Assembly: GCA_029263125.1 (NCBI GenBank)
Contig: JAJCYD010000013.1
Location: forward strand, 1-64,000
Direction: 5' to 3'
Source: Solirubrobacteraceae bacterium
GTDB lineage: Bacteria > Actinomycetota > Thermoleophilia > Solirubrobacterales > Solirubrobacteraceae
DNA length: 64,000 nt
Part shown: positions 12,430 to 50,322 of the stretch, piece by piece
Position numbering within the stretch: position 1 is the first letter of the stretch
Layout: each line of letters opens with the position of its first letter
The notes under the pieces: model-generated
What the model was told of the DNA's origin: nothing
Databases searched by the model: none
The model's input: the letters and a program-made list of their open reading frames with translations, nothing else
Position numbers and translations under genes: made by a program

Positions 12430-12449
12430 TCCTACGAAGCTCCGTAGGA
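12430..12449. promoter_or_regulatory. 20-bp palindrome, candidate operator (type 1)
   Basis: TCCTACGAAGCTCCGTAGGA is a near-perfect dyad: 7-base arms TCCTACG/CGTAGGA with a 6-base centre that is itself nearly symmetric. It ends 44 bases before the ATG at 12494. It contains CTACGA-N6-GTAG, shared with the sites near 19996, 25278 and 28558. It probably binds the BlaI/CopY-like repressor encoded at 25321. Confidence 0.6.
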
Positions 12450-12493
12450 GATGGCGCAATGACCGCCGACGCTGCGTCGTAGGTGGGCGTAGC

Positions 12494-13966
12494 ATGCCCG
12501 CGGTGGACGATCGCACGACTGCCGGCGCTCGATCGCGTCCGCGAACGCGTCTCTTGCCCGCGATCGTGGCGACGATCCTCGCGGGAAGCCTGGCGAACCC
12601 GGCGTTCGCAGATGCCCACGGTCTGATCGGCCGCACGGATCTGCCGATCCCCGCGTGGCTGTTCGGATGGGGCGCAAGCGTCGTGCTCGTCGTGTCGTTC
12701 GTGGCGTTGGGCGCGCTGTGGAAGCGTCCCCTGCTGCAAGGAGCACCGACGCGGCCGCTGCCGCGGCGTGTCGGGCGAGCCCTCACAAGCCCCGTGGTCG
12801 AGCTCGCATGCGGCGCCATCGGCGCCGCGCTGCTGGCGCTAGTCGTCTACGCGGGCTTCGCGGGTGCTGTTCGTGTCGACGAGAACATCACGCCGACTTT
12901 CGTGTACGTCGTCTTCTGGCTGGGGTTCGTGCCCCTGAGCGTGGTGTTCGGCGACGTCTTCGCCCTGTTCAATCCCTGGCGGGCGGTTGGTCGAGGCGTC
13001 GCACGAATCGCAGGCCCGCTGGCCATACCTCCGCCGCTGCGCTATCCGTCATGGCTGGGGCGCTGGCCCGCAGCGATCGGGCTGCTGGGCTTCGCGTGGC
13101 TCGAACTTGCCTCCACGCGCGGCGACCGGCCAGCGTCGATTGCGCTGGCTATCATCGCGTACTCGGCCATCACCTGGACCGCGATGTTCCTGTTCGGCGT
13201 CGAGCGCTGGGCGCGCGACGGCGAGGCGTTCTCGGTGTACTTCAACCTCCTGTCGCGCCTGTCGATCATCGAGCGCCGGGGCCGCGCGATCCGCATCCGG
13301 CCTCCCCTGTCGGGACTGACGACGCTCAAGCAGTCCCCGGGAACGGTCGCGCTCGTCGCCGTGATGATCGGGTCCGTCAGCTTCGACGGCTTCAGCATCG
13401 GGCAGCGATGGCAGGTCATCCTGCGAGAGTTCACCGACGGCCTGCGGTCGGCGGGCATGAGCTCTTCGCAAGCACTGGAATCCGGCCACGGGTTGGGCCT
13501 GCTCATCTCCGTCCTGCTCGTGTTCGTCTTCTACCGCACGGCGATCGGCGCCGCCTCCCGCGTCGGCGGCGGGCATTCGCCTGCAGGGCTTGCTGTCGTG
13601 TTCGCCCCCTCGCTCGTGCCGATCGCCCTGGCCTACGTGGGCGCCCACTACGTCAGCCTGCTGCTGCTCCAAGGCCAGGCGATGGGAGCCCTGGCATCAG
13701 ACCCGCTCGGTGAGGGCGCCAACATCTTCGGAACCGCCGCCTGGACGATCGACTACGCCTGGATCAGCGCCAACGCGTTCTGGTACATCCAGGTCGCGAT
13801 GATCGTCGCCGGACACGTCGGCGCGCTGGCGCTTGCTCACGACCGCGCGCTCGTGCTTTTCGGCAGCGCTCGAGCGGCGCTGCGATCGCAATACGGGATG
13901 CTCGGCGCGATGATCGGATTCACCTGCCTCGCGCTCTGGCTGCTCTCCGAGGCGGGGAAAGGGTGA
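12494..13966 (+). CDS. Large polytopic membrane protein of unknown function (copy 1)
   Basis: A 490-residue protein with a cleavable-looking signal (ATILAGSLANPAFADAHG) and about 10 transmembrane helices. The mature N-terminus begins at or near a histidine (DAHGLIGRTDLPIPAWLFG), and conserved segments include FNPWRAVGR, YPSWLGRWPA and VGAHYVSLLLLQGQ. It is clearly homologous along its length to the gene at 20953. I recall that such proteins are sometimes labelled fenitrothion hydrolase, a name that should not be trusted without data. The neighbouring CtaG, SCO1 and cupredoxin genes suggest a role in copper or redox handling in the envelope. A small membrane protein follows 10 bases later. Confidence 0.75.
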   Translation: MPAVDDRTTAGARSRPRTRLLPAIVATILAGSLANPAFADAHGLIGRTDLPIPAWLFGWGASVVLVVSFVALGALWKRPLLQGAPTRPLPRRVGRALTSPVVELACGAIGAALLALVVYAGFAGAVRVDENITPTFVYVVFWLGFVPLSVVFGDVFALFNPWRAVGRGVARIAGPLAIPPPLRYPSWLGRWPAAIGLLGFAWLELASTRGDRPASIALAIIAYSAITWTAMFLFGVERWARDGEAFSVYFNLLSRLSIIERRGRAIRIRPPLSGLTTLKQSPGTVALVAVMIGSVSFDGFSIGQRWQVILREFTDGLRSAGMSSSQALESGHGLGLLISVLLVFVFYRTAIGAASRVGGGHSPAGLAVVFAPSLVPIALAYVGAHYVSLLLLQGQAMGALASDPLGEGANIFGTAAWTIDYAWISANAFWYIQVAMIVAGHVGALALAHDRALVLFGSARAALRSQYGMLGAMIGFTCLALWLLSEAGKG

Positions 13967-13976
13967 CACGAGATCG

Positions 13977-14156
13977 ATGACCGTCATCGCGCATGCAAGC
14001 GGCTACCTGCCCTCGCTCCTGTACCTCGCCCCTATCTTGATCGTGATCGGAGCACTTCTCGTCACCAACATACGCGACCGTCGGCGCGGCGCTCCCGGCG
14101 ACGATCCCCCTGCGACAGCGGTCAACGATGATCAACATCCTCATCGCAGCAGTTGA
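13977..14156 (+). CDS. 59-residue membrane protein (type 1 pair member)
   Basis: ATG 13977 is 10 bases after the stop of the large membrane protein, so they are very likely cotranscribed. The peptide starts MTVIAHASGYLPSLLYLAP, has one helix (about 13-30), then a basic stretch NIRDRRRG and an acidic/polar tail. It resembles the 78-residue protein at 10743 in both the AHxxxYLP-type start and the helix-plus-arginine layout. It could be a small partner subunit of the large membrane protein, which is inference. Confidence 0.6.
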   Translation: MTVIAHASGYLPSLLYLAPILIVIGALLVTNIRDRRRGAPGDDPPATAVNDDQHPHRSS

Positions 14157-14420
14157 ACAGGAACCGTCCAAGGTGCCGAACTGTCATACGTCGCTGGCGA
14201 AGCGCCGGTGGACTTTGCCGTCGGCGTCTCCGTTGTCGGATTTGTTCGTTGCGACTTCCCGGCATCCGCCTCCCAGTCGCGAGTGATCATGATGGCCGGG
14301 CTCGCCCTGACCGTGCTCGTAATCGCGGCCGCCATGATCACGAGCTGACGCGATGGCAGGTTCGTCACCTCATGCCGGTACAGGCAGGCGAACAAGCACC
14401 CATCAACATTAGCCGCAGGG
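14157..14420. other. Intergenic stretch with a possible short membrane ORF remnant
   Basis: There is no gene with a convincing start. One plus-strand frame from about 14175 to 14348 encodes a hydrophobic tail (GLALTVLVIAAAMITS then stop) that could be the end of a decayed small membrane-protein gene. Otherwise nothing is recognisable. Confidence 0.3.
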
Positions 14421-15839
14421 TCAGCAGCGATCGGCGACTGCCCAGAATCGTCCACTGCTACGGATCGTGAACCCCTGCGGCGCACCGGCACGCGAAGTGA
14501 CCGAGTCCCTTCGATCCAACGCGTACAGGCGGCGAGCAGTACGCGAGGCGATCAGCACTGTGCCATTGCTGCTTGGGTCGTGAGCGTCGGTTCGTAGCGC
14601 AAACGGGGAGCTGCGAGTCCACCACGCGATCGACGGCACGGCGCGGCGATTGGGAAGGCTCAGCGGCCGACATGACCACGTCAGCCGGCCCGTGTCCGCG
14701 AGTCCGTGTAGTTCGCCCACGATCTGTCGCTGCGTTTCAAGCACCGCAGAAGTCGCAGTCAGGCGGTGAATCTGCCCTGGCGTTGCAACTGCCATCCACC
14801 CAGCCAGCACGTAGCCGGCGAGTCGCAGTGCGAGCGGCCCACGGTGATCGAGAGACCGCACAACCCCGACTGCAGCCACGACCGCGAGCAGCGAAGCGAC
14901 CGGCAGCAAGTATCGGGCGATCACAGGCAGACCGGTTAGCGCCAGCAACGAGAACCCCACCGAGACCGCGCAGATCGCGGAGACCATGACCCGAGCGTTT
15001 CGTCCACGGCGGACGACCAGCACAGCGATTCCTGCGACCGCAGCAACCAGAACGGGCTCCCGGAGAATCTCACCGATTCTGCGTGGGGCAACCAACACAA
15101 GAGCTTGCAGTCCGGTTGGTCGCGCGAGTGCTTGCGCACTCTGCCGGGTTCCGGTCAGCGACCACCACGGCACTCCGCTGGCAATGACGTCAAAGGTGAC
15201 CCACAGCAGCGGCGACCCGCTGGCCAGGACCACCCCCGCCACTCGGCTTCGAGACCCGAGCGCCGGCCAGCACCAGGCCAGGTACGCGATCGACAGTAGC
15301 CAGGCCTCAGGACGTAGGAGCCCAGCGATCGACAGGAGCATGAGCCCAGCTAGGCCGGCCCGGCATCTGCGCAGCTCGAGTGCCAGGACGCTTAGAAGCA
15401 GCGCACAGAACAGCACTTCGGAGTAACCACGCAGCGCCCAGGACACCACCGGCTCTCGTGTCACGATGATCGCGGCCGACAGCAGGGCAGCCCACCATCC
15501 GGCGAGTTGCCAAGCGACTGCACCGGCGGCTGCTGCAAGCCAACCCAGCGACCCGACGCTTATCAGGAGTAGTACCGCGGCTGACCGGTGACCGACGCCG
15601 AGTCTGTCCAAGACAACGCCGAAGGCGATGAGCAAGGGCTTTGGTGTCGGGGCCAGCGCAACCTGCACTTCCGGGCGATGGCCGTCTGCGATCTGACTAC
15701 CCCAGAGCAGCGCGTACGCACCGTCGTAGTTCAACGGACCCGCGCCCAAGAACATCCAGAAACCCAGCGCCACGGCGGCGGCACCGATGAGGCTGACCGC
15801 CAACCCTGCCACAGTCCAAGATTCAGGAGTTCCAGGCAT
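14421..15839 (-). CDS. Polytopic membrane protein, GT-C glycosyltransferase-like
   Basis: A 472-residue protein with about 10-11 helices and a soluble C-terminal tail of ~100 residues. The first outer loop carries LNYDGAYALLWGSQIADG, with an acidic residue where GT-C enzymes (lipid-linked sugar transferases) hold their catalytic Asp, and a further loop reads RGYSEVLF. This supports, but does not prove, a glycosyltransferase. It is isolated: downstream is a small gap, and upstream 295 bases (15840-16134) contain no recognisable gene. Confidence 0.55.
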   Translation of the reverse strand: MPGTPESWTVAGLAVSLIGAAAVALGFWMFLGAGPLNYDGAYALLWGSQIADGHRPEVQVALAPTPKPLLIAFGVVLDRLGVGHRSAAVLLLISVGSLGWLAAAAGAVAWQLAGWWAALLSAAIIVTREPVVSWALRGYSEVLFCALLLSVLALELRRCRAGLAGLMLLSIAGLLRPEAWLLSIAYLAWCWPALGSRSRVAGVVLASGSPLLWVTFDVIASGVPWWSLTGTRQSAQALARPTGLQALVLVAPRRIGEILREPVLVAAVAGIAVLVVRRGRNARVMVSAICAVSVGFSLLALTGLPVIARYLLPVASLLAVVAAVGVVRSLDHRGPLALRLAGYVLAGWMAVATPGQIHRLTATSAVLETQRQIVGELHGLADTGRLTWSCRPLSLPNRRAVPSIAWWTRSSPFALRTDAHDPSSNGTVLIASRTARRLYALDRRDSVTSRAGAPQGFTIRSSGRFWAVADRC

Positions 15840-16134
15840 TCGAGCAGCCCGACCGACGCGCGCTATCGCGTCCCGCCCGTCACTGTCAACAGCGATGGCT
15901 CAATCTTCAACTGGCGATGTGCCCGCTCTGACCAGCGCCCTCGAACGTCCGATCCGAACCAGTCGCGCCTACCAGCGAACTCGTCGCCGCGGTCCTTGAC
16001 ACCCCGGAAATCGACCTCCCGCGCCGCGTCCAGCGCGTGACCGCCTCCCGTCGTCAAGGAGTTGCTGGCGAGACACTGCGGCGTTCTGTCCCAACGAACA
16101 CCACATCCAGTCATGATCAGGCAGATTCTCACGC

Positions 16135-16809
16135 CTACCGTGCCTCTTCGCCGGCCAGCATGACGAGGTCGGCGGCCAGCTTGCGCGGGTCGATCGGGGC
16201 GCCAGCGGAGTACTTCGTGCGGATCTTGCCGTTGCGGTCGATCAGCCAGATGCTGGCGGTGTGGGTGCTGGTTTCCGGGCGCCCTTCGATCTGCGGTGCT
16301 GCGAAGTAGCGGCTCCACAGCGGCGCGAGCTGTTTCCTGGAACCGATCAGGTAGCGGAAGTTCTGCGGCAGCCGCTGGCGGTCAAGCCAGGTCCGCGCGG
16401 CGTCGGGGGTGTCTCCCTCTGGGTCGACGCTCACGCCGACGATCGTGACCGCCGCGGATCGCGAACCCATCATCTCCAGCGCCTGTTTGATCTCCTGGCC
16501 GATGATCGGGCACACGTCGGGGCACTGCGTGTAGAGAAACGTGACGGCGTACGGGCGACCGTCGAGCGATGCGCTGGAAAGCGTGCCTCCGCGCGCCGAC
16601 GTGAGCCGAAACGACGGCGCGGGCGCGCCGACGAGGGACTCGGGAAGGACGCTTGCTTGCGAGTCATTCGAGGGCGAAGTCTGGGTGGGGTCGCCGCCGC
16701 CCAGGGTCTGGGAGGCGATCAGCGCTGACAGTGCGAGCAGCAAGACGAGCGTCAGCGCCTGCGCCCAACGGATCGCGGAGTGGTCGCCGACGCGAGGCTT
16801 CTGGCTCAT
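16135..16809 (-). CDS. SCO1/SenC-type copper chaperone
   Basis: A 224-residue membrane-anchored thioredoxin-fold protein that carries Cu(I)/Cu(II) for CuA-site assembly or thiol redox in the envelope. After a single helix (about 16-35), the copper ligands are Cys96 and Cys100 in TQCPDVCP and the histidine of STHTASIWLID. The ATG at 16809 overlaps the stop of the CtaG-family gene by 4 bases, so the two are coupled. No oxidase subunit gene is nearby, so the target of the copper is open. Confidence 0.88.
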   Translation of the reverse strand: MSQKPRVGDHSAIRWAQALTLVLLLALSALIASQTLGGGDPTQTSPSNDSQASVLPESLVGAPAPSFRLTSARGGTLSSASLDGRPYAVTFLYTQCPDVCPIIGQEIKQALEMMGSRSAAVTIVGVSVDPEGDTPDAARTWLDRQRLPQNFRYLIGSRKQLAPLWSRYFAAPQIEGRPETSTHTASIWLIDRNGKIRTKYSAGAPIDPRKLAADLVMLAGEEAR

Positions 16810-17846
16810 GTTGTGGGGTCCGATCCTGGTGGTGGGCCGATCTTCGTCGCCGTGCACGGCGCACGTTCGTCGTCGATCTGCTCGCATGAGTCGCGATCTG
16901 CGTCTCGCGCGGCATGAGACTGGACCTGGGGTCGCGAGTGTGAGCTCCCGAGCGGCGCCTGAGGCTCTGCGCCTGCGGCCTGATCGAGTCGACGACGCAG
17001 GCGTTCGCCCTGGCCCGCGGCGACGGCTCGTCGCGCTCGCGCCGGATCGAGATCTACACCCAGACGCTCGGCGTGCTCGAGCAACTCCTGGGCCGCCTCA
17101 CCATGTGTCATCCATCGGGCGAATATCCACGCGAGGACTCCAACGGTGATGACCGTGCCTTCGAGCATCCAGATCGCACCCGCGATGCTCTGGTCGGCCG
17201 CCGCGTTGAACCCGCGGCTTCGCGCGATCGCCTCGTAGGTGGGATAGAACGCGCCTTCTGACCAGATGAACACGTTGGCGATGGCAGCGCCAGCGAGCCG
17301 TATGACGAAGACGTAGGCCAGGCCAGCAGCGTTGCCGAACCATGCGGGCTTGGGGAGCGGTCCGAGCAGGCCGATCCAGAGTGCCAATCCGGCACCGAAC
17401 ATCGTGGCGTGCTCGGCGGCATGCACGATGTCGCTGCGCAGGGCAGCCTGGTAGAGGAACGGGATGTGCCACCCGTAGTACACCAGCACCCAGACCGGTA
17501 CGGCGACGATCGGGTGAGCGAGGATCCGCAGATGCCGGATGCCCGCAGCGGCGAGGATCGGTCGCAGGAGTGGCCCGGTCACCGAGATCGCGATCAGCAG
17601 CGCGGCGACATCGCCGATCAGCAGATGCTGGATCATGTGAATCGACAGGCGCTGCTCGGATTGGGTGCCGATCGGCGGCAGGTCGGCCGCGACGGCGACC
17701 ACGATCCCGCCCGCGAACGTCAGCACACGCCAGGTCCGAACTGGTCGTCCCTCGGCGGCGAGCCGGCGAGCACGAACCGCGAAGATCACGGCGAGCACGT
17801 AGATCGGTGCTGCCTGGATGAGGCCGGAAGCCAACGCAGCCGACAT
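16806..17846 (-). CDS. CtaG-family (caa3-type) copper assembly membrane protein, copy 1
   Basis: A 346-residue protein. The first ~250 residues form about seven helices with family marks LSIHMIQHLLIGD, YYGWHIPFLYQAAL and ADQSIAGAIWMLEG; the histidine-rich helices are the presumed copper ligands. A hydrophilic C-terminal tail of ~90 residues (Arg/Ala/Pro-rich) is unusual compared with the other two copies in this window. It is cotranscribed with the SCO1-type gene. CtaG proteins help insert copper into cytochrome oxidase. Confidence 0.85.
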   Translation of the reverse strand: MSAALASGLIQAAPIYVLAVIFAVRARRLAAEGRPVRTWRVLTFAGGIVVAVAADLPPIGTQSEQRLSIHMIQHLLIGDVAALLIAISVTGPLLRPILAAAGIRHLRILAHPIVAVPVWVLVYYGWHIPFLYQAALRSDIVHAAEHATMFGAGLALWIGLLGPLPKPAWFGNAAGLAYVFVIRLAGAAIANVFIWSEGAFYPTYEAIARSRGFNAAADQSIAGAIWMLEGTVITVGVLAWIFARWMTHGEAAQELLEHAERLGVDLDPARARRAVAAGQGERLRRRLDQAAGAEPQAPLGSSHSRPQVQSHAARDADRDSCEQIDDERAPCTATKIGPPPGSDPTT

Positions 17847-17899
17847 CGGCTATGGCTCCTGCCCTACGCGTGGGGTCGATGCTGGGGTGACCGCCGGCT

Positions 17900-18709: not shown

Positions 18710-18710
18710 G

Positions 18711-19817
18711 TCATGACGCGTCGTCCCACGCGCGCAGCATCGGTAGCGGATCGATCGCGCTTCCGCCGGAGTACCAGCCGGGGGCCTGCCACAACTCGAA
18801 GTGCAGGTGGCAGCCGTCGGCGTTGCCGCTGTCGCCCACCTCTCCGATCTTCTGTCCGGTGAACACCGCTTGTCCCTTGCTGACCGCCGCCGGCGAGCGC
18901 ATGTGCATGTAGACGTAGTCCAGGCCACTGGCGGCGCCCGTGATGACGACGTAGTTGCCGGCCCGCGCATCCGTGTCGGCGAGCTTCACGGTGCCGGCGC
19001 GGGCGGCCGCCAGGCGTGTGCCGCAGGAGGCGAACATGTCCTGGCCCTTGTGCTTGCGAGCGCCACCGAAATTGTTGGTGTCGCTCTGGCCCAGGTCATG
19101 GCGGCCGCGAATCGGAAAGATGTGGTCGGCCACGGTGAACGCCGCGGAGTCCTGCGCGCTGACGCCGGCGGGTGTGACGCGCAGCCTGTAGATGCCCGGC
19201 GGCGCAGGTCCCCGGGCCGTCATGGCGTCCCAGCGCACGACGCTCGTTCCTTGTGGGGAGGCGACCGGCCAGCTCGCCACGACCGCTGAGTCCGCTTCGC
19301 GGAGCGCCTCTACGGTCACGGTCGCTGCTGCCGGCAGATTCACCGTCAGCTCCGGCTGTCGGCGACCCCCGACGAAGTACGTGCTGGTCGTGTTCGAGAG
19401 ATCGACGGGCGCAGCGGCGGCAACACGGACGCTGCGCCTGGTTCGAGCACGCTTCCCCACGGTCGAGAGCACCTCGATCGGTCCGCTGCGCGCACGTTTT
19501 GGTACGCGCGCTTCGAAATGTCCGGACCGCACATGGCGCGCCTTGGCGGCGACGTCGTCGCGGCGGCCTCTGCGACCACGGAAGATGACCTTTCGAGCTG
19601 CGTCCAGCGTGCGGCCGGTGACGCGGACGCGCGCACCCCGAACCAGCTGCTTGCGAGACTCACAGGCAACATCCGACGTCGCGAGGCATCGCACCCCGGT
19701 GATGCTCGGGGCGCCTTGCGCGGCGGCGCCGCCGGTGCGTGCCGCTAACGCCGGCGCGGCGACAACCGCGGTCGCGGCCGTCGCGATCACCAGCGAGCAG
19801 ATGCAGATCCTCGTCAT
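18711..19817 (-). CDS. M23-family (LytM-like) secreted endopeptidase
   Basis: A 368-residue secreted protein with a clear signal peptide (ICICSLVIATAATAVVAAPALAA) and an AGAGG-like ribosome-binding site before ATG 19817. Two beta-rich regions (about 40-215) precede the C-terminal peptidase domain. There, KHKGQDMF gives the H-x3-D zinc ligands and GCHLHFELW the H-x-H motif. It probably cuts peptidoglycan cross-links. It heads the transcript that continues with the CPBP protease and diverges from the copper/cupredoxin genes. Confidence 0.85.
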   Translation of the reverse strand: MTRICICSLVIATAATAVVAAPALAARTGGAAAQGAPSITGVRCLATSDVACESRKQLVRGARVRVTGRTLDAARKVIFRGRRGRRDDVAAKARHVRSGHFEARVPKRARSGPIEVLSTVGKRARTRRSVRVAAAAPVDLSNTTSTYFVGGRRQPELTVNLPAAATVTVEALREADSAVVASWPVASPQGTSVVRWDAMTARGPAPPGIYRLRVTPAGVSAQDSAAFTVADHIFPIRGRHDLGQSDTNNFGGARKHKGQDMFASCGTRLAAARAGTVKLADTDARAGNYVVITGAASGLDYVYMHMRSPAAVSKGQAVFTGQKIGEVGDSGNADGCHLHFELWQAPGWYSGGSAIDPLPMLRAWDDAS

Positions 19818-19995
19818 GGGCAACCTCTTTCCTCGTGCCTCCGGGGTTAGCTGCCGGGCTCGCGCGGAAATGATCGCGCTACGGCCATACAGGCCGATTC
19901 GCCCCTCTGACGTGGTTCCCCCGTATGCCCGGCTCGGGTGGCCGGACAACTCGGCTGCGGACAAGCGCCGCGACTGTACCAGCTTCGCCGGCTTG

Positions 19996-20011
19996 CTACG
20001 ACCACCTGTAG
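19996..20011. promoter_or_regulatory. Candidate operator, type 1 (CTACGA-N6-GTAG)
   Basis: CTACGACCACCTGTAG lies in the divergent region between the M23 gene (start 19817) and the small membrane gene (start 20057). Half-sites CTAC and GTAG are 8 bases apart, as in the site near 12432. Its right edge is 45 bases before the start codon, against 46 bases for the other. Confidence 0.5.
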
Positions 20012-20056
20012 TACGTGTGCGCCATCGAACGGATCGCGTGCTTATCATGGCTGCGG

Positions 20057-20377: not shown

Positions 20378-20491
20378 ACGCCTCGCCGCCGGCCCGCTGC
20401 CGGCCACGCCGCGCCATCGATGTTCTGACCGCTGCGGTTGTGTTTCAACGCTGAACGTTCGATTCCCTCTTCTCATCGAGGTCTGTATCTC

Positions 20492-20956
20492 ATGTCACAA
20501 CGTCAACGAGTGCTCTTGTCCATGGCGACGGTCGTGGTAATCGTCGCGGCGTTCGTCGTGCTGCGCCCCGACGACGGTCAGGACAGCGTCCAACCCGCGC
20601 AGACCAGCGCGCCGGCCCCCGCGACAGCGACCACGCCGGCCGTGACCGACACGCGTGAGCCTCCCCCGCCAGTACCCGAGGCTGCCCCGCGGCCAAGGTT
20701 CGTGCAGATCCGCGCGCAGGGCCTTCAGCCCGTGGGAGGCGTCAAGAAGATCGACGTCAACAAGGGCGACACTGTGCGCTTCGAGGTCCGCTCCGACCAG
20801 GCCGACGAAGGCCATCTGCATGGCTATGACATCAGCAAGCCCGTCGGACCCGGCAAGACGGCGCGCTATGAGTTCACCGCCAGGATCGAGGGCATCTTCG
20901 AGCTCGAGCTCGAAGGTGCCGGGGTCGCGATCGGCGAGTTGCAGGTCAACCCGTGA
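20492..20956 (+). CDS. Membrane-anchored cupredoxin-like protein
   Basis: A 154-residue protein. An N-terminal helix (about 8-24) anchors it, followed by a Pro/Thr/Ala-rich linker (~28-65) and a cupredoxin-like beta domain (~68-154). The possible copper ligands are in EGHLHGYDI. The classic Cys ligand near the C-terminus is absent, so it is not a typical blue copper protein. The stop overlaps the GTG of the next gene (GTGA), so it is coupled to the large membrane protein. Probably a periplasmic-side copper binder. Confidence 0.7.
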   Translation: MSQRQRVLLSMATVVVIVAAFVVLRPDDGQDSVQPAQTSAPAPATATTPAVTDTREPPPPVPEAAPRPRFVQIRAQGLQPVGGVKKIDVNKGDTVRFEVRSDQADEGHLHGYDISKPVGPGKTARYEFTARIEGIFELELEGAGVAIGELQVNP

Positions 20957-22357
20957 GACGGCGGGCCGGCCTATGCGCCATCGGCGCGCTGGCGATCTGC
21001 GCGCTCGCGCCGGCGACCGCCTTCGCGCACGGGCTGGTCTCGCGCTCCGACCTGCCGATCCCGCAGTGGCTGTTCGCGTGGGCCGCAGTGCTCGTGCTCG
21101 TCCTGTCGTTCGTCGGGCTGGCGGTGCTGTGGCCCAAGCCCAAGCTGGAGGACCGATCGGCGCGGAGGCTCTTCGGCGTCCCGGCATGGGTCGGAGCCCG
21201 TCTGTGCAGCAGTCGGGGTCGGCGTCTTCGCGCTCGTCGTCTACAGCGGCCTTGCGGGCAACCAGACGTCGACGGCGAACCTGGCACCGACGTTCGTGTA
21301 CGTGCTCTTCTGGGTCGGGCTGGCGCCGCTCAGCGCGTTGCTGGGTGATGTGTTCCGTGCGTTCAACCCGTGGCGGGGCGTCGCGCGCGCCGCCGCGTGG
21401 ACCGCCGGTCGTGTCTCGCTGACGCCCTTGCCGTCGCCGATCGCCTATCCGGATTGGCTCGGGCGCTGGCCGGCGGTGGTCGGACTGCTGGGCTTCGCGT
21501 GGCTTGAGCTGGCATCCTCTGACAGCACGAGCCCGCAGTTCATCGCGATTCTGGCGCTCGTCTATGCCGCCCTGCAGTTCGTCGGCATGGGGTTGTTCGG
21601 CATCGATCGCTGGAGTGATCGCGGCGATGCCTTCGGCGTGTACTTCAACCTCTTCGCTTGCGTCTCGCCGCTGCAGCGTCGCGGCCGCGATCTCGTTCTC
21701 GTGCGCCCGCTGAGTCGCCTCACCGGGCTGCTCAGCGTGCCGGGCACGCTGGCGCTGCTGTTCGTGATGATCGGGTCGACGAGCTTTGATGGCGCGTCGG
21801 CTGGCTCGATCTGGGCTTCGGTCGCGCCCGGCATCCAGGATGCGATGCAGGCCCTGGGACTTGGCCAGGCGGCTGCGCTTGAGGCGGCCAGCACCGTCGG
21901 GCTGGCGATCTCGATCCTGCTGATCGCCGGCGTCTATCGCATCGGCATCTCTGGAATGCGGTCGATCGCCCGGCAGGACACGACGCAGCTCGCGGGCCGC
22001 TTCGCGCACACGCTGGTCCCGATCGCGCTGGCATACGTCGTCGCCCACTACTTCTCGCTGCTGGTCTTTCAAGGCCAGGCAGCGGGCTACCTGTTCTCCG
22101 ATCCACTTGGGAACGGCTCGGATTTCCTCGGCCTGGCTTCGAGCACGATCGACTACGGGCTCGTCTCGGCCAACGGCGTCTGGTACGTGCAAGTCGCCGC
22201 GCTGGTCATCGGCCACGTCGCCGGCCTGACCCTCGCCCATGACCGATCGCTGACGACCTACTCCACACCAAGGCTGGCCACGCAGTCTCAGTACTGGATG
22301 CTCACCGTGATGATCGGCTACACGTCGCTCGGGCTATGGCTGCTGTCATCAGCTTGA
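20953..22357 (+). pseudogene. Large polytopic membrane protein, copy 2, with one frameshift
   Basis: The homologue of the gene at 12494, read in two frames. The first part from GTG 20953 covers the signal peptide and first helix (AHGLVSRSDLPIPQWLF). The second part continues in the +1 frame (APTFVYVLFWVGLAPLS, FNPWRGVARAA, YPDWLGRWPAV, YVVAHYFSLLVFQGQ) to the stop at 22357. The break lies near 21180-21195, and similarity resumes at once on the other side (EPVCAAVGVG). All other parts are intact, so it is either a recent mutation or a sequencing error. It is coupled to the cupredoxin gene upstream and overlaps the CtaG-family gene downstream by 22 bases. Confidence 0.75.
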
Positions 22358-23112: not shown

Positions 23113-24146
23113 CCGGTTACCCTGGTGGCGTGTACCTACGACTGATCGTCGTCGGCTTGGTCGGGATGCTCGTGCTCGCCGGATGCGGAAGCAACGAGGA
23201 GGGTCCGCGAGCGCCCCTTGCCGAGTCCTCAGCCGAGCTGCGAGCCCAGCTCAACGACGCCACGAAGTCCGAGGCCGCAGACTTCCCGGCCACCGCCGGG
23301 CGCTCGCTGCAGGCGGTCGCCGACGGCATTGGAGCCACCGGCCCGCAGGTCGGACTGGCCGGATCGGTCTTCACCCCCGGCATGAACCGCCTGGCGTTCG
23401 GCGTCATCGACCCCGAGAGCGGATTTCTCTACGGCAAGACCGCCGTGTACGTCGCCGACGGCCCAAACGCCAAGGCCCAAGGACCGTTCCCGGCGCCCGC
23501 CGACCTGCTCGTCACCGATCCGGCCTTCCGCAGCCAGACGGCCGCCAGCGAGGAGGACATCTTCGCCGCGATCTACCAAGCGCGCGTGCCATTCAAAGAC
23601 ACCGGCAAGAAGTCGATCCTCGTCGTTACAAAGCTCAACGGCGACAAGCTCAACGGCCAGCTCGTCGCCGCACCGGCCCAGATCACCGTCACGCCGACCA
23701 AGCGCGACAGCATTCCGCGCCCCGGCGACAAGCCACCGGACATCAACACCGAAACGCTGGCGTCCGCCAGCGGCAACCTGAAGCTCCTCGACACCCGCCA
23801 ACCTGCCGACGACATGCACGCCGTCGACTTCGCCGACGTCATCGGCCGCAAGCCCGTCGCACTGCTCTTCGCCACACCGGCGCTGTGCGAATCGCGCGTC
23901 TGCGGGCCCGTCGTCGACATCGCGCTGCAGCTGAAGGCCACCTACGGCGACCGCGTCACCTTCATCCACCAGGAGGTCTTCGTCGACAACGACCCCAACA
24001 AAGGACTGCGCCCGCCACTGCGCGCCTTCAACCTGCCGACCGAGCCGTGGCTGTTCGTCTTCGATCAGGACGGGCGCCTCACAACCCGCCTGGAAGGCTC
24101 CTTCGGCTTCAATGCCGTCGAACGCGCGCTCAACAGCGCGCTCTAA
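23109..24146 (+). CDS. Thioredoxin-like lipoprotein
   Basis: A 345-residue lipoprotein: signal peptide ending LVLAGC (lipid-modified Cys26), a beta-rich middle domain, and a C-terminal thioredoxin-like domain (about 235-345). The redox or metal site is CESRVC, a C-x4-C at residues 260 and 265, rather than the usual CxxC. A SCO-like copper role is possible given the operon. It overlaps the last 4 bases of the convergent Myb-repeat gene. Confidence 0.75.
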   Translation: MTGYPGGVYLRLIVVGLVGMLVLAGCGSNEEGPRAPLAESSAELRAQLNDATKSEAADFPATAGRSLQAVADGIGATGPQVGLAGSVFTPGMNRLAFGVIDPESGFLYGKTAVYVADGPNAKAQGPFPAPADLLVTDPAFRSQTAASEEDIFAAIYQARVPFKDTGKKSILVVTKLNGDKLNGQLVAAPAQITVTPTKRDSIPRPGDKPPDINTETLASASGNLKLLDTRQPADDMHAVDFADVIGRKPVALLFATPALCESRVCGPVVDIALQLKATYGDRVTFIHQEVFVDNDPNKGLRPPLRAFNLPTEPWLFVFDQDGRLTTRLEGSFGFNAVERALNSAL

Positions 24147-25273
24147 TCCGCTGCCGTCACCGAGTTCGCCCGCGCCCGCCCGGCATCAGGCCGTGCGGAT
24201 GACGACGCGGCCTCGGCAGCCGCCGTGCGGATGACCTCCACCGGAATGTCCAGACGCCGCGCCACGGAGAACACCCGTCCGGGACCGCCCGCGCGCAGCT
24301 CACGTGCGGCCGTGACCTCTTCTCCAGGCGTCAGCGCCCGACGGCGCGGGACGGGATGGTGCGGCGAGCGCCCCTGACGCACGCCCAGCCGCAGCATGCG
24401 CTGAGTCACGGCGCCCGATGATCTGCCAAGTACCCCCGCCAACGCCGCAGGGTTCAGCGCGCCGTTGACCCGCAGGACCTCGTCCTCGGCGGCCGTCCAA
24501 CGGCGCCCGGAACGCACGGCCCCGCTGGACACCGAATGCGAGATGTCAAGTCGGCGCAACCGCATGACCAGCGCCTGCGGCGTCCGGCCCAAGATCAGCG
24601 CCATGGCGTCGACGGTCAGGCCTTCACCGCAGAGCGCCCGCAATCGGTGGTCATCGCGGGCCGACCACGCGCGCGCGTGTGTCGCCACCCCGAGCTTGGC
24701 CGCACGCGCCGCCACCGCCCCGGAGGTGCGCCCCGGCAACCTGTTCGCGATCTGCTCGCAGCTCAGCGCGTGTTCGTACCCGTCACGCAGCCGCATGTCC
24801 TCGTCGGGCAGCCAGCGACGACGGCAAGCAGGACGATGCAAGCCGATCTTCTGGGCGCGCAGGCGCACCGAACCTACCGACCGACCCAGCTCACGAGCAA
24901 GCTCGCCGATCTCCTCACCGGGGCGCCAGCGCGCACGCAGGACCTCGTCGTCGACGGCGGTATACGGGCGCGGCGACCACTTCGGCCCTACGAGCAGGTG
25001 CCGGCGATAGCGCACCTGCTCAACGGTGCGGCCCAGACGCCGCGCCACGGGGCCGTCGGCAAGTCCGGCCGATGCCGCGGCGCGCACGAGCGCGTCCTCC
25101 GCGGCCGTCCACCCAGGCGTGTGCCTTCGCGGCGTGACGTTCAGGCAGCGGCGGCGCTCATCCACTGCGTCCTCAGACCTGCCCAGCCGCTCTCCGATCC
25201 TCCGCAACGACACGCCGTCCATGTAGAGCCGCCGCAGAGCTGCGTCTTCGGCTCGTGTCCATCTGGCAGCCAT
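24143..25273 (-). CDS. Multi-repeat Myb/SANT-like DNA-binding protein
   Basis: A 376-residue protein made of about six tandem ~45-residue repeats plus a degenerate seventh. Repeats start near residues 3, 53, 102, 151, 200, 256 and 308. Each has an aromatic-x-x-x-D/E-D opening (ARWTRAEDAALR, PGWTAAEDALV, RRWTAAEDEVLR) and a recognition segment LGRS/T-x-x-x-V-x-x-R. This is the pattern of Myb/SANT or related three-helix DNA-binding modules, unusual in such number for a bacterium. It is divergent from the BlaI-like regulator gene, and the shared promoter region carries a type 1 palindrome. It could be a transcription factor reading an extended site; the target is unknown. Confidence 0.7.
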   Translation of the reverse strand: MAARWTRAEDAALRRLYMDGVSLRRIGERLGRSEDAVDERRRCLNVTPRRHTPGWTAAEDALVRAAASAGLADGPVARRLGRTVEQVRYRRHLLVGPKWSPRPYTAVDDEVLRARWRPGEEIGELARELGRSVGSVRLRAQKIGLHRPACRRRWLPDEDMRLRDGYEHALSCEQIANRLPGRTSGAVAARAAKLGVATHARAWSARDDHRLRALCGEGLTVDAMALILGRTPQALVMRLRRLDISHSVSSGAVRSGRRWTAAEDEVLRVNGALNPAALAGVLGRSSGAVTQRMLRLGVRQGRSPHHPVPRRRALTPGEEVTAARELRAGGPGRVFSVARRLDIPVEVIRTAAAEAASSSARPDAGRARANSVTAAD

Positions 25274-25277
25274 GACC

Positions 25278-25296
25278 TACGACAGATCCTAGTAGA
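25278..25296. promoter_or_regulatory. Candidate operator, type 1, between Myb-repeat gene and blaI-like gene
   Basis: The sequence CTACGA at 25278 is followed at the type 1 spacing by CTAG and then TAG, so the right half is imperfect. It lies in the 47-base divergent region, 24 bases before the regulator start. It fits autoregulation of the BlaI-like repressor. Confidence 0.45.
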
Positions 25297-25320
25297 CGAA
25301 GGCCAGGTAGGCTCCGCACC

Positions 25321-25722
25321 ATGGCAAAGCACGCTGCGAAGCGGCCCACCACACCACCACATCTGCACGAGCTCGAACAGGAAGTCATGGAAGAGGTCTG
25401 GCGGCTCGGCGAGGCTCCCGGCCGCGCCGTCCTCGACGGCCTGAACACGCGCACCGAGCGTATCCGCGCCTACACGACGATCATGACGATCCTTCACAGG
25501 CTCAACGACAAGGGCCTGCTCAAGCGCCGGCGTCAGGGCAAGAGCGACTTCTACGTCGCCACCTTCTCGCGCGAGGAATACGCCGACGCTCGAGCCGCAG
25601 CCCAGGTCGACGCGCTCGTCGAGGAATGGGGCGAGCTGGCGTTCGTGCACTTCGCCAAGCAGATGGCGACGCTCGACCCTCACCGTCGCCAGCAGCTCTC
25701 CCGTCTTGCCCGCCGTGCCTAG
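25321..25722 (+). CDS. BlaI/MecI/CopY-family repressor 1
   Basis: A 133-residue winged-helix repressor. The family core LHELEQEVMEEVWRLGEAP, the helix-turn-helix around YTTIMTILHRLNDKGLLKRRR and the dimerising C-terminal helices are all present. There is no CxC copper motif of the CopY kind, so the inducing signal is probably relayed by the M56 protease encoded next (overlap of a few bases). This BlaI-M56 pairing is the classical layout for proteolytic derepression. Confidence 0.88.
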   Translation: MAKHAAKRPTTPPHLHELEQEVMEEVWRLGEAPGRAVLDGLNTRTERIRAYTTIMTILHRLNDKGLLKRRRQGKSDFYVATFSREEYADARAAAQVDALVEEWGELAFVHFAKQMATLDPHRRQQLSRLARRA

Positions 25723-26626
25723 AGCGGCGGGCTTGTACCGGCTGCACGCGGTGATCGCGTTCGGCGGCATCCTCGGCGTGCTGCTCGCACTGCTCGTCGC
25801 TCTCGATGCCGCGATGACCCACGACCAATCGCCAGGAGCGCTGGTGTCCACCATGGGGTCCTCTCCAACGATGACCTCCGACACGACCGCCGCGCTGCTG
25901 CTGACCTTGGGCGCCGTGGTCTCCTGCTCGCTGGGTCTCGGTCTGCGAGCCCTGTGGGTCGAATGCCTCAGCCACTGGCGCGCCAGCCGGCTCCTGCAAA
26001 GCAGCTCCAGCATCACAACCGCCATCGGCGCGGTCCGCGTCATCGCCGACGACCAGCCGCGAGCGTTCTGCCACGGCCTGCTGGGACCGCGCGTCTACAT
26101 CTCCAGCGGGGCGCTGCACGCCCTGACGCCACCTGAGCTCGCCGCGCTCTTGGCACACGAGCAGCACCACGCACGACGCCGAGACCCGCTGCGGTTTGCG
26201 CTCGCCCGGATCCTTGGCGGTGCATTGTTCTTCCTTCCGGTCCTACCGCGATTGCTGGATCGCTATGGCGATGCCGCGGAGATCGCGGCTGACGAGGCGG
26301 CAATTGCAGGCGGTCAGGATGTGGCGGCGCTGGCCGCGGCACTGCTGACCTTCGAAGAATCCGGTGCCGGCCTGCATCCAGATCGCGTCGATCGGCTGCT
26401 GGGTGAACACATCGAGTCGCGGATACCGACCGCATGGGTGCGCAGCACCGCCGTGATCATCGTCACGATCATCGGCCTCGGACTCGCGGGCAGCACGCTC
26501 GACGGCCACGAGTATCTCCTCCTCGCTGGTCTCCTCGTCGCTGGTCCCGCCCTGCTGGTCGCGATCGCTCTCGCGCTCGCCTCACCGGTGAATCTCCTTG
26601 ACGGGCTCTCCCGCTGGGCAGCCTGA
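25715..26626 (+). CDS. M56-family membrane metalloprotease (BlaR1-like, without sensor domain) 1
   Basis: A 303-residue membrane protein with the zinc motif HEQHH at residues 148-152, followed by ARRRDPL, and a downstream ADEAAI glutamate as third ligand. About five helices surround it. The penicillin-binding sensor domain of BlaR1 is absent, so a different signal must be sensed. It overlaps the repressor gene. By family analogy it would cleave the repressor, which is inference. GTG 25715 is preferred; TTG 25706 is possible. Confidence 0.85.
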   Translation: MPRAAGLYRLHAVIAFGGILGVLLALLVALDAAMTHDQSPGALVSTMGSSPTMTSDTTAALLLTLGAVVSCSLGLGLRALWVECLSHWRASRLLQSSSSITTAIGAVRVIADDQPRAFCHGLLGPRVYISSGALHALTPPELAALLAHEQHHARRRDPLRFALARILGGALFFLPVLPRLLDRYGDAAEIAADEAAIAGGQDVAALAAALLTFEESGAGLHPDRVDRLLGEHIESRIPTAWVRSTAVIIVTIIGLGLAGSTLDGHEYLLLAGLLVAGPALLVAIALALASPVNLLDGLSRWAA

Positions 26627-26680
26627 CCGCGGACCTCACTCTGACGTGCTCAGCGTTCAAGCGCGATCCAGGTAGCTCGG

Positions 26681-27286
26681 ATGGGCGATCAGCCGATGCT
26701 GGCGCTGCTCCTCGCCGTCGTGGTGTTCACCGCCCTCGCCGTGCTCGTGCTCCGCTGGGCGGCCGACGACTTGGCCGGACCAGGGACGCTGTCGGCGAAG
26801 GCGCTCGTCTCGTCGTGGCTGCTGTATGTCTTTCATGCCGACACGGTCGCCACCGCAGCCTTGACCGGCGCGATCACCGTCGATGTGCCGAGCGCGCCGG
26901 CGCTGGCAATCGGAGCGGGAATCGCGCTGGCCGGGTTCGTGGTCTTCCTGGCCGCGACGATCACGCTTGTGCGCCACGGTGACTTCGCCGGCCCTCGCAC
27001 ACAGCGACTGGTGACCGTCAGCGCCTATCGCTTCAGTCGTCACCCGCAGAACCTCGGTTGGGGGGTGATGCTGCTGGGCATCGCCGTGGCGGGACGCTCG
27101 CTCGTCGCGCTCGTTCTCGTCGGCATGTTCGCAGCGTTCGTCGACCGCTATTCCCGCCTGGAAGAGCAGCAGCTACAGCGACACTTCGGCGCGGCATACG
27201 AGAAGTACCGCGCTCGGACGCCGGCCCTCCTGCCGAGGCCCGGCGTGTTGGCGGCGCTCGTCGCGACGCGCCGTCAGACGCTCTGA
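26681..27286 (+). CDS. ICMT/PEMT-like membrane methyltransferase
   Basis: A 201-residue protein with about five helices and the family C-terminal motif VSAYRFSRHPQNLGWG, followed by a glutamate pair (SRLEEQQL) and FGAAYEKYRARTPALLP. It is likely a SAM-dependent methyltransferase acting on a small hydrophobic or lipid substrate. It ends convergently with the ccdA-like gene, overlapping it by 13 bases. Confidence 0.75.
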   Translation: MGDQPMLALLLAVVVFTALAVLVLRWAADDLAGPGTLSAKALVSSWLLYVFHADTVATAALTGAITVDVPSAPALAIGAGIALAGFVVFLAATITLVRHGDFAGPRTQRLVTVSAYRFSRHPQNLGWGVMLLGIAVAGRSLVALVLVGMFAAFVDRYSRLEEQQLQRHFGAAYEKYRARTPALLPRPGVLAALVATRRQTL

Positions 27287-28008
27287 AAGAAGTTCAGGCC
27301 CAGGCCGTCGAGGAACTGCTGTACCTCGATGTTCAGGCGAAACAACTGGTTGGTGAGCACCAGCACGCCCATCGCGACCAGCACCGCCCCGGAGCCGACC
27401 TGGATTGCGACGTAGTGGCGCTTGAAGAACGCGAATGACCGGCTGGCGGCGTTGAACGCGACAGCGGACACGAAGAACGGCAGGGCAAGTCCGGCCGAGT
27501 AGATCGCCAGCAGCAGCGCGCCGCGCGCTGTGCCCTCCTGTGTCGCGGCGATGCCGAGGATCGCTCCAAGCGTCGGCCCGACGCATGGCGTCCACGCGAT
27601 CGCGAACGCAGCGCCGGCGACGATGGGCCCGCCGCGGCCCGCGCGCTCGATCAGTCCTCGCGGCCTGAAGTCTCGGCCCAGGCGCGCGAAGAACACCGAC
27701 GAGATGAAGAACACGCCCATCGCGATGACGAGCACACCTGCAACGGTGTTCAGCGTGCGCTGGCTGTCGAAGAGCACCTCGCCGGCGAGCGTGGCACTGA
27801 GCCCGAGGAGGATGAACAGCAGCGAGAACGTGCCGACAAACAGAAGGCTGCGCCCGATGACCGCCGGGTCCACGCGCGCGCCGCCGCCTGCGGGGTTCAC
27901 GCCAGTGACGGTCGCAAGGTAGCCGGGCACCAGCGGCAGGCAGCAGGGCGACAGAAACGAGATCAGTCCCGCGGCGAACGCGAGTGCGATCGTCGGCGTG
28001 TCGATCAT
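27274..28008 (-). CDS. ccdA: CcdA/DsbD-type thiol-disulfide transporter
   Basis: A 244-residue polytopic protein that carries reducing power across the membrane to extracytoplasmic thioredoxin-like proteins. Redox cysteines lie in ISFLSPCCLPLVPGYL near the N-terminus and WTPCVGPTLGAIL in the middle; there are about six helices. The ATG overlaps the stop of the TlpA-like lipoprotein gene upstream by 4 bases, its probable electron partner. Confidence 0.88.
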   Translation of the reverse strand: MIDTPTIALAFAAGLISFLSPCCLPLVPGYLATVTGVNPAGGGARVDPAVIGRSLLFVGTFSLLFILLGLSATLAGEVLFDSQRTLNTVAGVLVIAMGVFFISSVFFARLGRDFRPRGLIERAGRGGPIVAGAAFAIAWTPCVGPTLGAILGIAATQEGTARGALLLAIYSAGLALPFFVSAVAFNAASRSFAFFKRHYVAIQVGSGAVLVAMGVLVLTNQLFRLNIEVQQFLDGLGLNFFQSV

Positions 28009-28568
28009 CGCAGCGCGTAGCGTCGGATGTTCGCGTCCAGGGCTGCCTCGTCGCGGTAGGCCCCCTGGTGGGTGAAGCTCAGCTTCCCCGCCGCGTCATA
28101 GAACGCGGTCGTCGGCCATGCCCGGCCTCCGCGAAACAGGCGGGCGACGTTCCCGTCAGGATCCTCGATGTGCGCGTACGGGGTCGGATAGCGTGAGAGA
28201 AACCCGCGTGCGGTGCCGGGGCTGTCGCGTGAGTTGACGCCGAGAAACGCGACCTTGCCACGGTAGCTCTGGGCGAGGCGCTGAAAGAACGGGAACTCCG
28301 CGCGGCATGGGCCACACCACGACGCCCATTGGTTCACCACGACCGGGATACCGCGAGCCGCGGCGATGCGACGGCGAAACTCGTCCTCTCCCCCGGCCAA
28401 TAGCCGGTTGGCATCGGGGTCGACGCGCCGCAGCTCGACCAATGATCTCTCATCGCCTCTGATCGCCGAGGGGTTGGCCCGCTGCTCCTGCGTGCCGCAG
28501 GCCGCAAGCAGAAGCGCCGTCAGAACACCAAGCAGGACACGGATCGAACAGGACATCCTACGATGCAT
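28005..28568 (-). CDS. TlpA/ResA-like thioredoxin lipoprotein
   Basis: A 187-residue protein with an N-terminal signal ending LLLAACG (lipobox) and a thioredoxin domain with the active site NQWASWCGPCRAEFPF. It likely reduces or exchanges disulfides outside the cytoplasm with CcdA as the electron source. The start is ambiguous: ATG 28568 keeps a basic n-region (MHRRMSCS), ATG 28556 is shorter. Either start lies inside the palindrome at 28555-28580, so repressor binding would block initiation directly. Confidence 0.85.
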   Translation of the reverse strand: MHRRMSCSIRVLLGVLTALLLAACGTQEQRANPSAIRGDERSLVELRRVDPDANRLLAGGEDEFRRRIAAARGIPVVVNQWASWCGPCRAEFPFFQRLAQSYRGKVAFLGVNSRDSPGTARGFLSRYPTPYAHIEDPDGNVARLFRGGRAWPTTAFYDAAGKLSFTHQGAYRDEAALDANIRRYALR

Positions 28569-28580
28569 AGTACGTAGGAT
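28555..28580. promoter_or_regulatory. Palindromic operator, type 1, between tlpA-like and CDF genes
   Basis: Perfect 8-base arms ATCCTACG and CGTAGGAT are separated by 10 bases. Inside, CTACGA-N6-GTA gives the same half-site spacing as the sites at 12432 and 19996, so two half-sites may overlap here. It covers the start of the minus-strand lipoprotein gene and lies ~40 bases upstream of the plus-strand CDF gene. Confidence 0.65.
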
Positions 28581-28614
28581 GACCTTCCACAAGCCGGGCG
28601 CCGCCGCTCCCGGC

Positions 28615-50275: not shown

Positions 50276-50307
50276 AGCAGCGAGTGTAGCTGCGTATGAC
50301 GATCACC

Positions 50308-50322
50308 ACTACGCCTCGTAGT
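50308..50322. promoter_or_regulatory. Candidate operator, type 2 (ACTAC-N5-GTAGT)
   Basis: ACTACGCCTCGTAGT is a perfect dyad with 6-base arms and a 3-base centre. It overlaps the stop of the hydrolase gene and precedes the BNR lipoprotein gene. Same layout as the site at 52501, so likely bound by the BlaI-like repressor at 53523. Confidence 0.6.

What the first reader, a model, noticed from the sequence alone, without database searches (positions are those of the whole stretch)
12430..28580. A shared palindrome links four promoters: candidate regulon of BlaI-like repressor 1
CTACGA followed by N6 and a (G/C)TA-type right half occurs at 12432 (GTAG), 19996 (GTAG), 25278 (CTAG) and 28558 (GTAC, with a second GTAG 4 bases on). 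The site at 12430 is a near-perfect 20-base dyad and the one at 28555 has perfect 8-base arms. At 12.4 and 20.0 kb the right half-site ends 46 and 45 bases before the start codon. All four lie in divergent or upstream regions of copper/redox membrane genes or of the repressor itself. BlaI/CopY repressors bind symmetric TAC...GTA sites. That one repressor ties the cupredoxin-CtaG operon, the membrane protein operon, CcdA/TlpA and CDF efflux together is inference.
Basis: partly seen in the sequence, partly recalled or inferred. Interest (0 to 1): 0.78.

Follow-up and report, generated by a model that had tools for sequence, protein, structure and literature searches.

The report
BlaI repressor operators across copper genes
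The repeated palindrome is very probably the docking site of a BlaI-type repressor that controls a scattered set of copper-handling and respiratory genes in soil bacteria of the Solirubrobacteraceae, with an operator layout different from the one published for penicillinase and copper repressors.

Summary
The four sites are real. As written, CTACGA-N6-STA is not specific: 63 genome copies, 52 in called genes. The better motif is CTAC-N8-GTAG.

In 54 blaI loci of relatives, CTAC-N8-GTAG occurs 74 times outside called genes and never inside. Most other spacings are near zero; the exceptions are 5 and 11 (three-base slips) and 7 and 4 (mainly one genus and one further genome). The other three of the top seven precede a BNR protein, a DUF2933 gene and the CopCD/second-blaI pair. 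Random sequence gives about 0.07 such hits.

In other genera the sites recur before blaI, DsbA-like, M23 and Sco-like genes, CDF, CopCD, DUF2933 and methyltransferase genes.

Best explanation: a BlaI repressor, with a protease partner in which no penicillin-binding sensor was found, controls envelope copper/redox genes through an operator unlike TACANNTGTA. Not shown: binding, inducer, or which of three similar BlaI proteins acts.

The parts
12430..12449 (.). Site A: TCCTACG-N6-CGTAGGA dyad; N8 core CTACGAAGCTCCGTAG at 12432-12447, between DUF4383 (-) and the membrane protein gene (+)
   Evidence: matrix score 17.2, rank 5 in window
12467..12482 (.). Weaker second site beside A (one mismatch, CGAC-N8-GTAG); the same pair lies between DUF4383 and blaI on contig C24
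   Evidence: score 12.0, below the threshold of 14.03; outside the DUF4383 genes only the 60 bp holding both sites aligns
19996..20011 (.). Site B: CTACGACCACCTGTAG(TAC), between the M23 / Rce1-like / CtaG / SCO genes (-) and the small-protein / cupredoxin-like / membrane / CtaG / Sco-like genes (+)
   Evidence: score 16.1, rank 7
25277..25295 (.). Site C: CTACGACAGATCCTAGTAG, between the Myb-like gene (-) and blaI-1 (+); on the - strand CTACTAG-N8-GTAG, 3 bases before the Myb-like ATG
   Evidence: score 18.8, rank 2
28554..28581 (.). Site D: CATCCTACG-N10-CGTAGGATG dyad; N8 core CTACGATGCATAGTAC at 28558-28573; overlaps possible start codons of the TlpA-like gene (-), upstream of CDF (+)
   Evidence: score 19.6, rank 1; the N12 CTAC/GTAG register of the perfect dyad is not enriched in relatives
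50306..50321 (.). Extra site (holds CTAC-N5-GTAG at 50309), 30 bases upstream of the BNR-repeat gene 49367-50275 (-)
   Evidence: score 16.3, rank 6; sequence; overlaps the 3' end of gene 50309-51646 and so is counted as coding
52499..52514 (.). Extra site (CTACACGATGTAG, N5 type, at 52502), 41 bases upstream of the DUF2933 gene 52215-52457 (-)
   Evidence: score 17.9, rank 3; sequence; genes of this blastp cluster have facing sites in 6 genomes
53958..53973 (.). Extra site CTACACTGCGTCGTCG between blaI-2 (-) and CopC-CopD (+)
   Evidence: score 17.7, rank 4; sequence; CopCD genes have facing sites in 5 genomes
25321..25722 (+). BlaI-1, Penicillinase_R repressor, 133 aa, no cysteine
   Evidence: PF03965 73.4 bits against cut-off 22.6; 0 Cys
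25706..26626 (+). BlaR-like membrane metalloprotease with HEQHH; no penicillin-binding sensor domain found
   Evidence: PF05569 and PF01435 only, at E <= 0.001; HExxH
53523..53924 (-). BlaI-2
   Evidence: PF03965 78.8 bits (scanned as 53523-53957); start as called
52601..53530 (-). BlaR-like protease 2 with HEDHH
   Evidence: PF05569 and PF01435
11863..12303 (-). DUF4383 membrane protein, candidate target of site A
   Evidence: PF14325
12494..13966 (+). Multi-pass membrane protein without Pfam match; homologues adjoin blaI in several genomes
18711..19817 (-). M23 peptidase, first gene left of site B
   Evidence: PF01551; M23 genes near sites in L187, L189, L198 and L201
17900..18709 (-). Rce1-like membrane protease behind the M23 gene; the same pair occurs in L201
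   Evidence: PF02517
16135..17846 (-). SCO1/SenC (16135-16887) and Caa3_CtaG (16806-17846)
   Evidence: PF02630, PF09678
20015..24146 (+).
24143..25273 (-). Myb-like multi-repeat DNA-binding protein, divergent from blaI-1, start codon beside site C
   Evidence: PF13921, PF00249
27274..28556 (-). CcdA (27274-28008) and TlpA-like thioredoxin (28005-28556), left of site D
   Evidence: PF02683, PF00578
28651..29565 (+). CDF cation efflux protein, right of site D
   Evidence: PF01545, PF16916

Best explanation
The palindromes are operators of the BlaI family repressors encoded beside them. A BlaI dimer binds CTAC-N8-GTAG (idealised TACTACGAYGCRTCGTAGTA), whose arms can slip by three bases (CTACTAC/GTAGTAG). 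Many sites lie at or close before start codons, so a bound dimer would block transcription start at its own gene and at a dispersed set of envelope copper, cytochrome-oxidase-assembly and thiol-redox genes. A co-encoded BlaR-like membrane metalloprotease, in which no penicillin-binding sensor domain was found, would release repression by cutting the repressor when an unknown envelope signal (copper or redox stress is most plausible) arrives. Shown: motif, spacing, placement, recurrence, linkage to blaI, kinds of target. Inferred: binding, repression, protease release, signal.
For: (1) Spacing. In 54 blaI loci of relatives CTAC-N8-GTAG occurs 74 times outside called genes and 0 times inside (overlapping registers counted apart). 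Spacings 11, 5, 7 and 4 give 34, 21, 13 and 7 outside genes; every other spacing from 0 to 20 gives 0-3. (2) Directly upstream of 34 blaI homologues (two of them of this genome): 16 N8, 7 N11, 4 N5, one each N0, N7, N14, none at N1-N4. (3) A matrix trained without the window genome ranks the four sites 1, 2, 5 and 7 in the window. Random sequence with the window's dinucleotide make-up: mean 0.07, maximum 2, in 200 trials. No hit outside genes in 33,954 nt of other loci of the same genome. (4) C24: a pair of exact N8 sites before a blaI paralogue. (5) In four genomes that I picked for many sites, 23 of 58 exact sites fall in the blaI stretches fetched; about 0.4 expected from their share of the genome (my arithmetic). 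(6) Targets recur: blaI/blaR in 21 genomes, DUF2933-like in 6, DsbA-like in 5, CopCD in 5, BNR in 4. (7) The best PDB match by sequence is 2g9w, E 3.7e-7, with AYTTVM against AYTTIM in the recognition helix; I recall 2g9w as M. tuberculosis BlaI.
Against: 19 of 54 relative blaI loci have no matrix hit. The matrix was trained on relatives' blaI neighbourhoods, so densities there are in-sample. Six of the seven loci in which a homologue of the 12.5 kb membrane protein adjoins a blaI also lack hits. Only 27 of 54 loci hold any of a wide copper/redox gene set and 21 a stricter copper/oxidase set, so the copper theme is not universal. Some targets elsewhere (SecY, FtsH-like, Rieske, PAP2, Lipoprotein_15) are not copper genes. 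Site D has GTAC instead of GTAG in the N8 register; sites 50306 and 52499 are N5 type; an ORF of unlikely start runs through site B. The excess of sites per Mb in blaI-positive genomes is modest (2.16 against 1.67). No binding or expression data.
Confidence: 0.85

Rival explanations
1. The palindromes are operators of another regulator that travels with these genes (CsoR, ArsR or the Myb-like protein divergent from blaI-1).
For: CsoR (57862-58179), ArsR (32028-32417) and a Myb-like protein (24143-25273) are in the window; site C abuts the Myb-like start codon. The relatives' loci were chosen for holding blaI, so finding BlaI in them is no evidence by itself.
Against: Of the 35 relative loci with matrix hits only 1, 1 and 2 hold a called homologue of the Myb-like protein, CsoR and ArsR. 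Sites face blaI/blaR genes in 21 genomes, and in four genomes the sites concentrate at blaI stretches.
Confidence: 0.08
2. The motif is a core-promoter element (for example the -10 box of leaderless genes) rather than a repressor site.
For: Ten of 79 exact sites end 0-3 bases before a called start codon, two of them overlapping registers of one site, and TACACT or TACTAT inside several sites (by eye) fits a TAnnnT box.
Against: The element is a two-sided palindrome with preferred spacing, has only 12 exact copies in this genome, and is concentrated at blaI loci in the genomes looked at; a core promoter would be common.
Confidence: 0.04
3. The four sites share letters by chance or by recent duplication only.
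For: The DUF4383 genes next to site A and on C24 are paralogues, 83% identical in DNA.
Against: Outside these paralogous genes only 60 bp with the two sites aligns. Other genera carry the sites and random sequence does not reproduce the window hits.
Confidence: 0.03

Closest known systems
BlaI/MecI beta-lactam repressors with BlaR1/MecR1
   Same: PF03965 repressor, adjacent M56-type membrane metalloprotease, palindrome with TAC/GTA arms at its own promoter.
   Different: No penicillin-binding sensor domain found on the protease. TAC-N8-GTA instead of the TACANNTGTA reported for BlaI, MecI and CopY (passages of PMC7253601): TAC-N4-GTA 0 and TAC-N8-GTA 22 in 34 upstream regions; no TAC-N4-GTA in the whole window. 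Candidate targets are copper/redox genes.
CopY/CopR copper repressors
   Same: Same Pfam family and, by inference here, regulation of copper genes.
   Different: CopY carries C-terminal CxC metal-binding motifs (passages of PMC7253601); BlaI-1 has no cysteine. Operator spacing differs.
Mycobacterium tuberculosis BlaI (Rv1846c)
   Same: Best PDB match 2g9w (recalled to be this protein) has a near-identical recognition helix. It controls genes beyond beta-lactamase such as atpH and sigC (passage of PMC8265638). That its protease partner also lacks the sensor is recalled.
   Different: Its operator (Sala et al. 2009, not held, not read) could not be compared, so I cannot say whether the spacing is the same.
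Clostridium thermocellum BlaI_0696
   Different: Firmicute (recalled); small regulon of sensor genes; spacing 5 rather than mainly 8.

Membership tests
BlaI/MecI/CopY repressor family (PF03965) | Penicillinase_R domain over the curated cut-off | tested here: met
   BlaI-1 73.4 bits, BlaI-2 78.8 bits, cut-off 22.6
BlaI/MecI/CopY repressor family (PF03965) | Palindromic operator-like site at its own promoter | tested here: met
   Site C before blaI-1; C24 pair; 16 N8 sites upstream of 34 homologues
BlaI/MecI/CopY repressor family (PF03965) | Dimer that binds this operator | not testable with these tools
   Needs gel shift or DAP-seq
Classical BlaI/MecI/CopY operator TACANNTGTA | TAC and GTA arms separated by four bases | tested here: not met
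   TAC-N4-GTA 0, TAC-N8-GTA 22 in 34 upstream regions; none in the window
BlaR1/MecR1 beta-lactam sensor | Zinc metalloprotease HExxH in an M56-type membrane protein | tested here: met
   PF05569/PF01435; HEQHH and HEDHH
BlaR1/MecR1 beta-lactam sensor | C-terminal penicillin-binding sensor domain | tested here: not met
   306- and 309-aa proteins match only M56/M48 at E <= 0.001
CopY copper sensor | C-terminal CxC metal-binding motifs | tested here: not met
   BlaI-1 has no cysteine; the aligned parts of C24 BlaI and BlaI-2 have none either

The most novel reading that the evidence does not exclude
A whole bacterial family uses a BlaI/BlaR-type protease-released repressor, stripped of its antibiotic sensor, as a regulator of envelope copper delivery, oxidase assembly and thiol redox. 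Its operator geometry (N8 with three-base slips) is distinct from TACANNTGTA and has shifted to N7/N4 in a genus whose BlaI recognition helix starts with SYTT instead of AYTT or KYTT, and, with an unchanged AYTT, in one further genome.
Probability: 0.45. Interest if true: 0.65.

Novelty: new variant of a known kind. Interest (0 to 1): 0.52.

Why it matters
It gives an operator definition and a target list for a group of BlaI/BlaR pairs that carry the beta-lactamase-regulator family names but show no beta-lactam sensor where I looked and often sit among copper and respiratory genes. It makes the signal question testable. It also offers a natural series of operator spacings, with their repressor sequences, for studying how a repressor and its site change together. 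My searches of the held library (listings only) showed no paper describing it; the library lacks most subscription journals, including Sala et al. 2009.

Tried and rejected
Exact consensus CTACGA-N6-STA as the working motif: rejected, 52 of 63 genome copies are in called genes. Reversed-pattern counts as a control: not used for the refined motif, because the reversed palindrome is far commoner (220 against 12 in this genome); I did not look into why. The N12 register of the perfect dyad at site D: not enriched in relatives. A phylum-wide N8 operator: of 123 of 296 same-phylum genomes with a BlaI-family match, the 30 best loci showed no CTAC-N8-GTAG upstream; their CTAC/GTAG pairs were one N3, two N5 and two N7. 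The upstream position was approximated for the shorter loci in that script, so this is weak. Upstream scan was wrong for minus-strand loci; redone. Genome counts by BlaI presence are a weak test because blaI-positive genomes are larger. A match of operator spacing to the recognition helix: only partly, because AYTTVL occurs both in the N7/N4 locus L197 and in N8 loci L198, L201 and L204. The gene caller is home-made, trained on these loci and the window, and misses some true genes (for example 14421-15839) and true starts. The random-sequence control is a first-order Markov resampling, not an exact shuffle.

Left out before counts: of 55 BlaI matches in relatives, two (G074, G132:C93) were not in the fetched stretches, so the 51 stretches hold 53; L020, L021, L023 and L026 were dropped as duplicates of G014, G012, G071 and G015 loci; also L009 and L010; of the 76 loci only L022, L024 and L025 were used in the 54.
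Full report
The window is the start of contig C13 of a 3.75 Mb genome; the window is 69% GC. Its closest named BlaI relatives are Solirubrobacteraceae, Solirubrobacterales and Thermoleophilaceae assemblies, so I treat it as that group.

Observation. The four sites exist; one coordinate is off by one and the arms of the 28.5 kb dyad are nine bases, not eight. The pattern as written occurs 63 times in the genome. I looked at the surroundings of all 63: 52 lie in called genes and 11 outside. Those two lie between a blaI paralogue (82% identical to the window BlaI) and a divergent DUF4383 gene. Site A in the window also lies next to a DUF4383 gene. The two DUF4383 genes are 83% identical in DNA. 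Outside the genes only a 60-base stretch with the two palindromes still aligns, at 78%, a footprint between paralogues.

Better motif. CTAC-N8-GTAG has 12 copies in the genome. Four are outside called genes: 12432, 19996, C24:472 and C24:508. At 19996 an ORF of unlikely start runs through the site (see the observation check). The other eight lie inside ORFs, often at their stop codons, or, on C52, a few bases beyond a gene end. I fetched 51 stretches holding 53 of the 55 BlaI matches found in relatives and used three named contigs. In these 54 loci CTAC-Nk-GTAG was counted for k 0-20. N8: 74 outside called genes, 0 inside. N11: 34, N5: 21, N7: 13, N4: 7 outside genes; every other spacing 0-3. 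N5 and N11 follow largely from arms written CTACTAC or GTAGTAG. N7 and N4 sites come mainly from G025 and genus g23. Directly upstream of 34 BlaI homologues there are 16 N8, 7 N11, 4 N5, one each of N0, N7 and N14, and none at N1-N4; the classical TAC-N4-GTA is absent while TAC-N8-GTA occurs 22 times.

Independent test in the window. A symmetric matrix built only from the relatives' loci converged on TACTACGAYG/CRTCGTAGTA (134 sites), with the threshold set so that about five positions in 592 kb of called genes pass (a recount found 135 sites outside genes and 7 inside). In the window seven positions exceed it: 28558, 25277, 52499, 53958, 12432, 50306 and 19996, in that order. Random sequence of the window's dinucleotide make-up gives 0.07 hits (maximum 2 in 200 trials). 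Of 29 loci holding homologues of the 12.5 kb membrane protein, 22 hold no blaI and none of these has a hit; of the seven that hold a blaI, one (L143, G113) has hits and six, all of genus g23, have none.

Linkage to blaI. In four genomes that I picked for many sites, all 58 exact N8 sites were listed. Within the blaI stretches fetched earlier fall 4 of 12 (G014), 6 of 16 (G139), 4 of 16 (G071) and 9 of 14 (G105); about 0.4 in total would be expected from their share of the genome (my arithmetic). Across 146 family genomes, the 42 with a BlaI match have 2.16 sites per Mb against 1.67 in the 104 without, a modest difference.

Targets. The 135 matrix sites in relatives lie in 31 genomes; 111 have a gene start facing them. 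Facing gene clusters: blaI or blaR in 21 genomes; DUF2933-like in 6; DsbA-like thioredoxin, PAP2/haloperoxidase-like, Rieske and CopC-CopD in 5 each; isoprenylcysteine methyltransferase plus one SCO in 4; BNR and Lipoprotein_15 in 4 each; Sco/Tlp-like, M23, TlpA-like, FliL-like and DUF3105 in 3 each; CopA, CDF, CtaG, cupredoxin-like and the membrane protein in one each. Names come from blastp to window proteins and from Pfam on single representatives. DUF4383 was seen as a target only in this genome. Not all targets elsewhere are copper genes (SecY, FtsH-like, Rieske), and only 21 of 54 loci hold genes of a strict copper/oxidase set, so copper as the signal is a lead, not a result.

How it may work. 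Many sites lie very close to start codons: ten of 79 exact sites end 0-3 bases before a called start. On the minus strand site C ends three bases before the Myb-like ATG and site D overlaps possible TlpA-like starts. A dimer there would cover the transcription start. The repressor has no cysteine, which speaks against a CopY-type metal sensor. The neighbouring protease has HExxH and M56/M48 matches but no penicillin-binding domain was found, so a beta-lactam is an unlikely input. By analogy with S. aureus BlaR1, which cuts BlaI directly (passages of PMC9834060), repression would be released by cleavage. Which of BlaI-1, BlaI-2 and the C24 BlaI acts on which site cannot be said: their recognition helices read AYTTIMTIL, AYTTILTIM and AYTTIMTIL.

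Compared with the known. The published operator for CopY, BlaI and MecI is TACANNTGTA, extended to 16 bases for CopY (passages of PMC7253601). C. thermocellum BlaI_0696 sites have arms five bases apart (passages of PMC8457756). The N8 layout here differs from both. M. tuberculosis BlaI has a wider regulon (passages of PMC8265638 and PMC12565901), but its operator letters were not in anything I could read (passages of PMC4757040 and PMC4301838). I therefore call this a new variant of a known kind, with confidence 0.85 that BlaI proteins bind these sites and less for the signal.

Noticed in passing
L197; L206, L214, L215, L217, L218 (G025 and genus g23): blaI loci without matrix hits carry CTAC-N7-GTAG or CTAC-N4-GTAG sites, several in L197 including one before a TlpA-like gene; the BlaI helix of the g23 loci reads SYTTIL, that of L197 AYTTVL (which N8 loci L198, L201 and L204 share). 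Operator spacing seems to have shifted.
   Followed up: partly
L015:3902-3918 (G000:C35): Another BlaI-family gene of the genome has TCCTACA-TCC-TGTAGGA about 85 bases before a possible GTG start, a different palindrome.
   Followed up: no
window 20953-22357: The second membrane protein gene appears split between two frames: its N-terminal part is in ORF 20953-21348, while homology to 12494-13966 in the other frame starts at 21140. Sequencing error or real frameshift.
   Followed up: no
G000:C48:162167-163603; G132 and G133 homologues: Some relatives of the 12.5 kb membrane protein contain in-frame stop codons (1 in C48, 4 each in G132 and G133).
   Followed up: no
window 24143-25273; L212, L213: A protein of repeated Myb-like DNA-binding domains sits beside blaI in this genome and near it in two relatives; its start codon adjoins site C.
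   Followed up: partly
L017 (G000:C43:166500-169500): A 48% GC stretch that looks foreign beside the 69% GC of the window; possible contamination or recent import.
   Followed up: no
L179 (G018:C73:70000-82253): A blaI-blaR-DUF4396-BNR module occurs twice in tandem, with identical 28-base stretches around the palindromes at 6594 and 11001; the second copy reaches the contig end, so it may be an assembly artefact.
   Followed up: no
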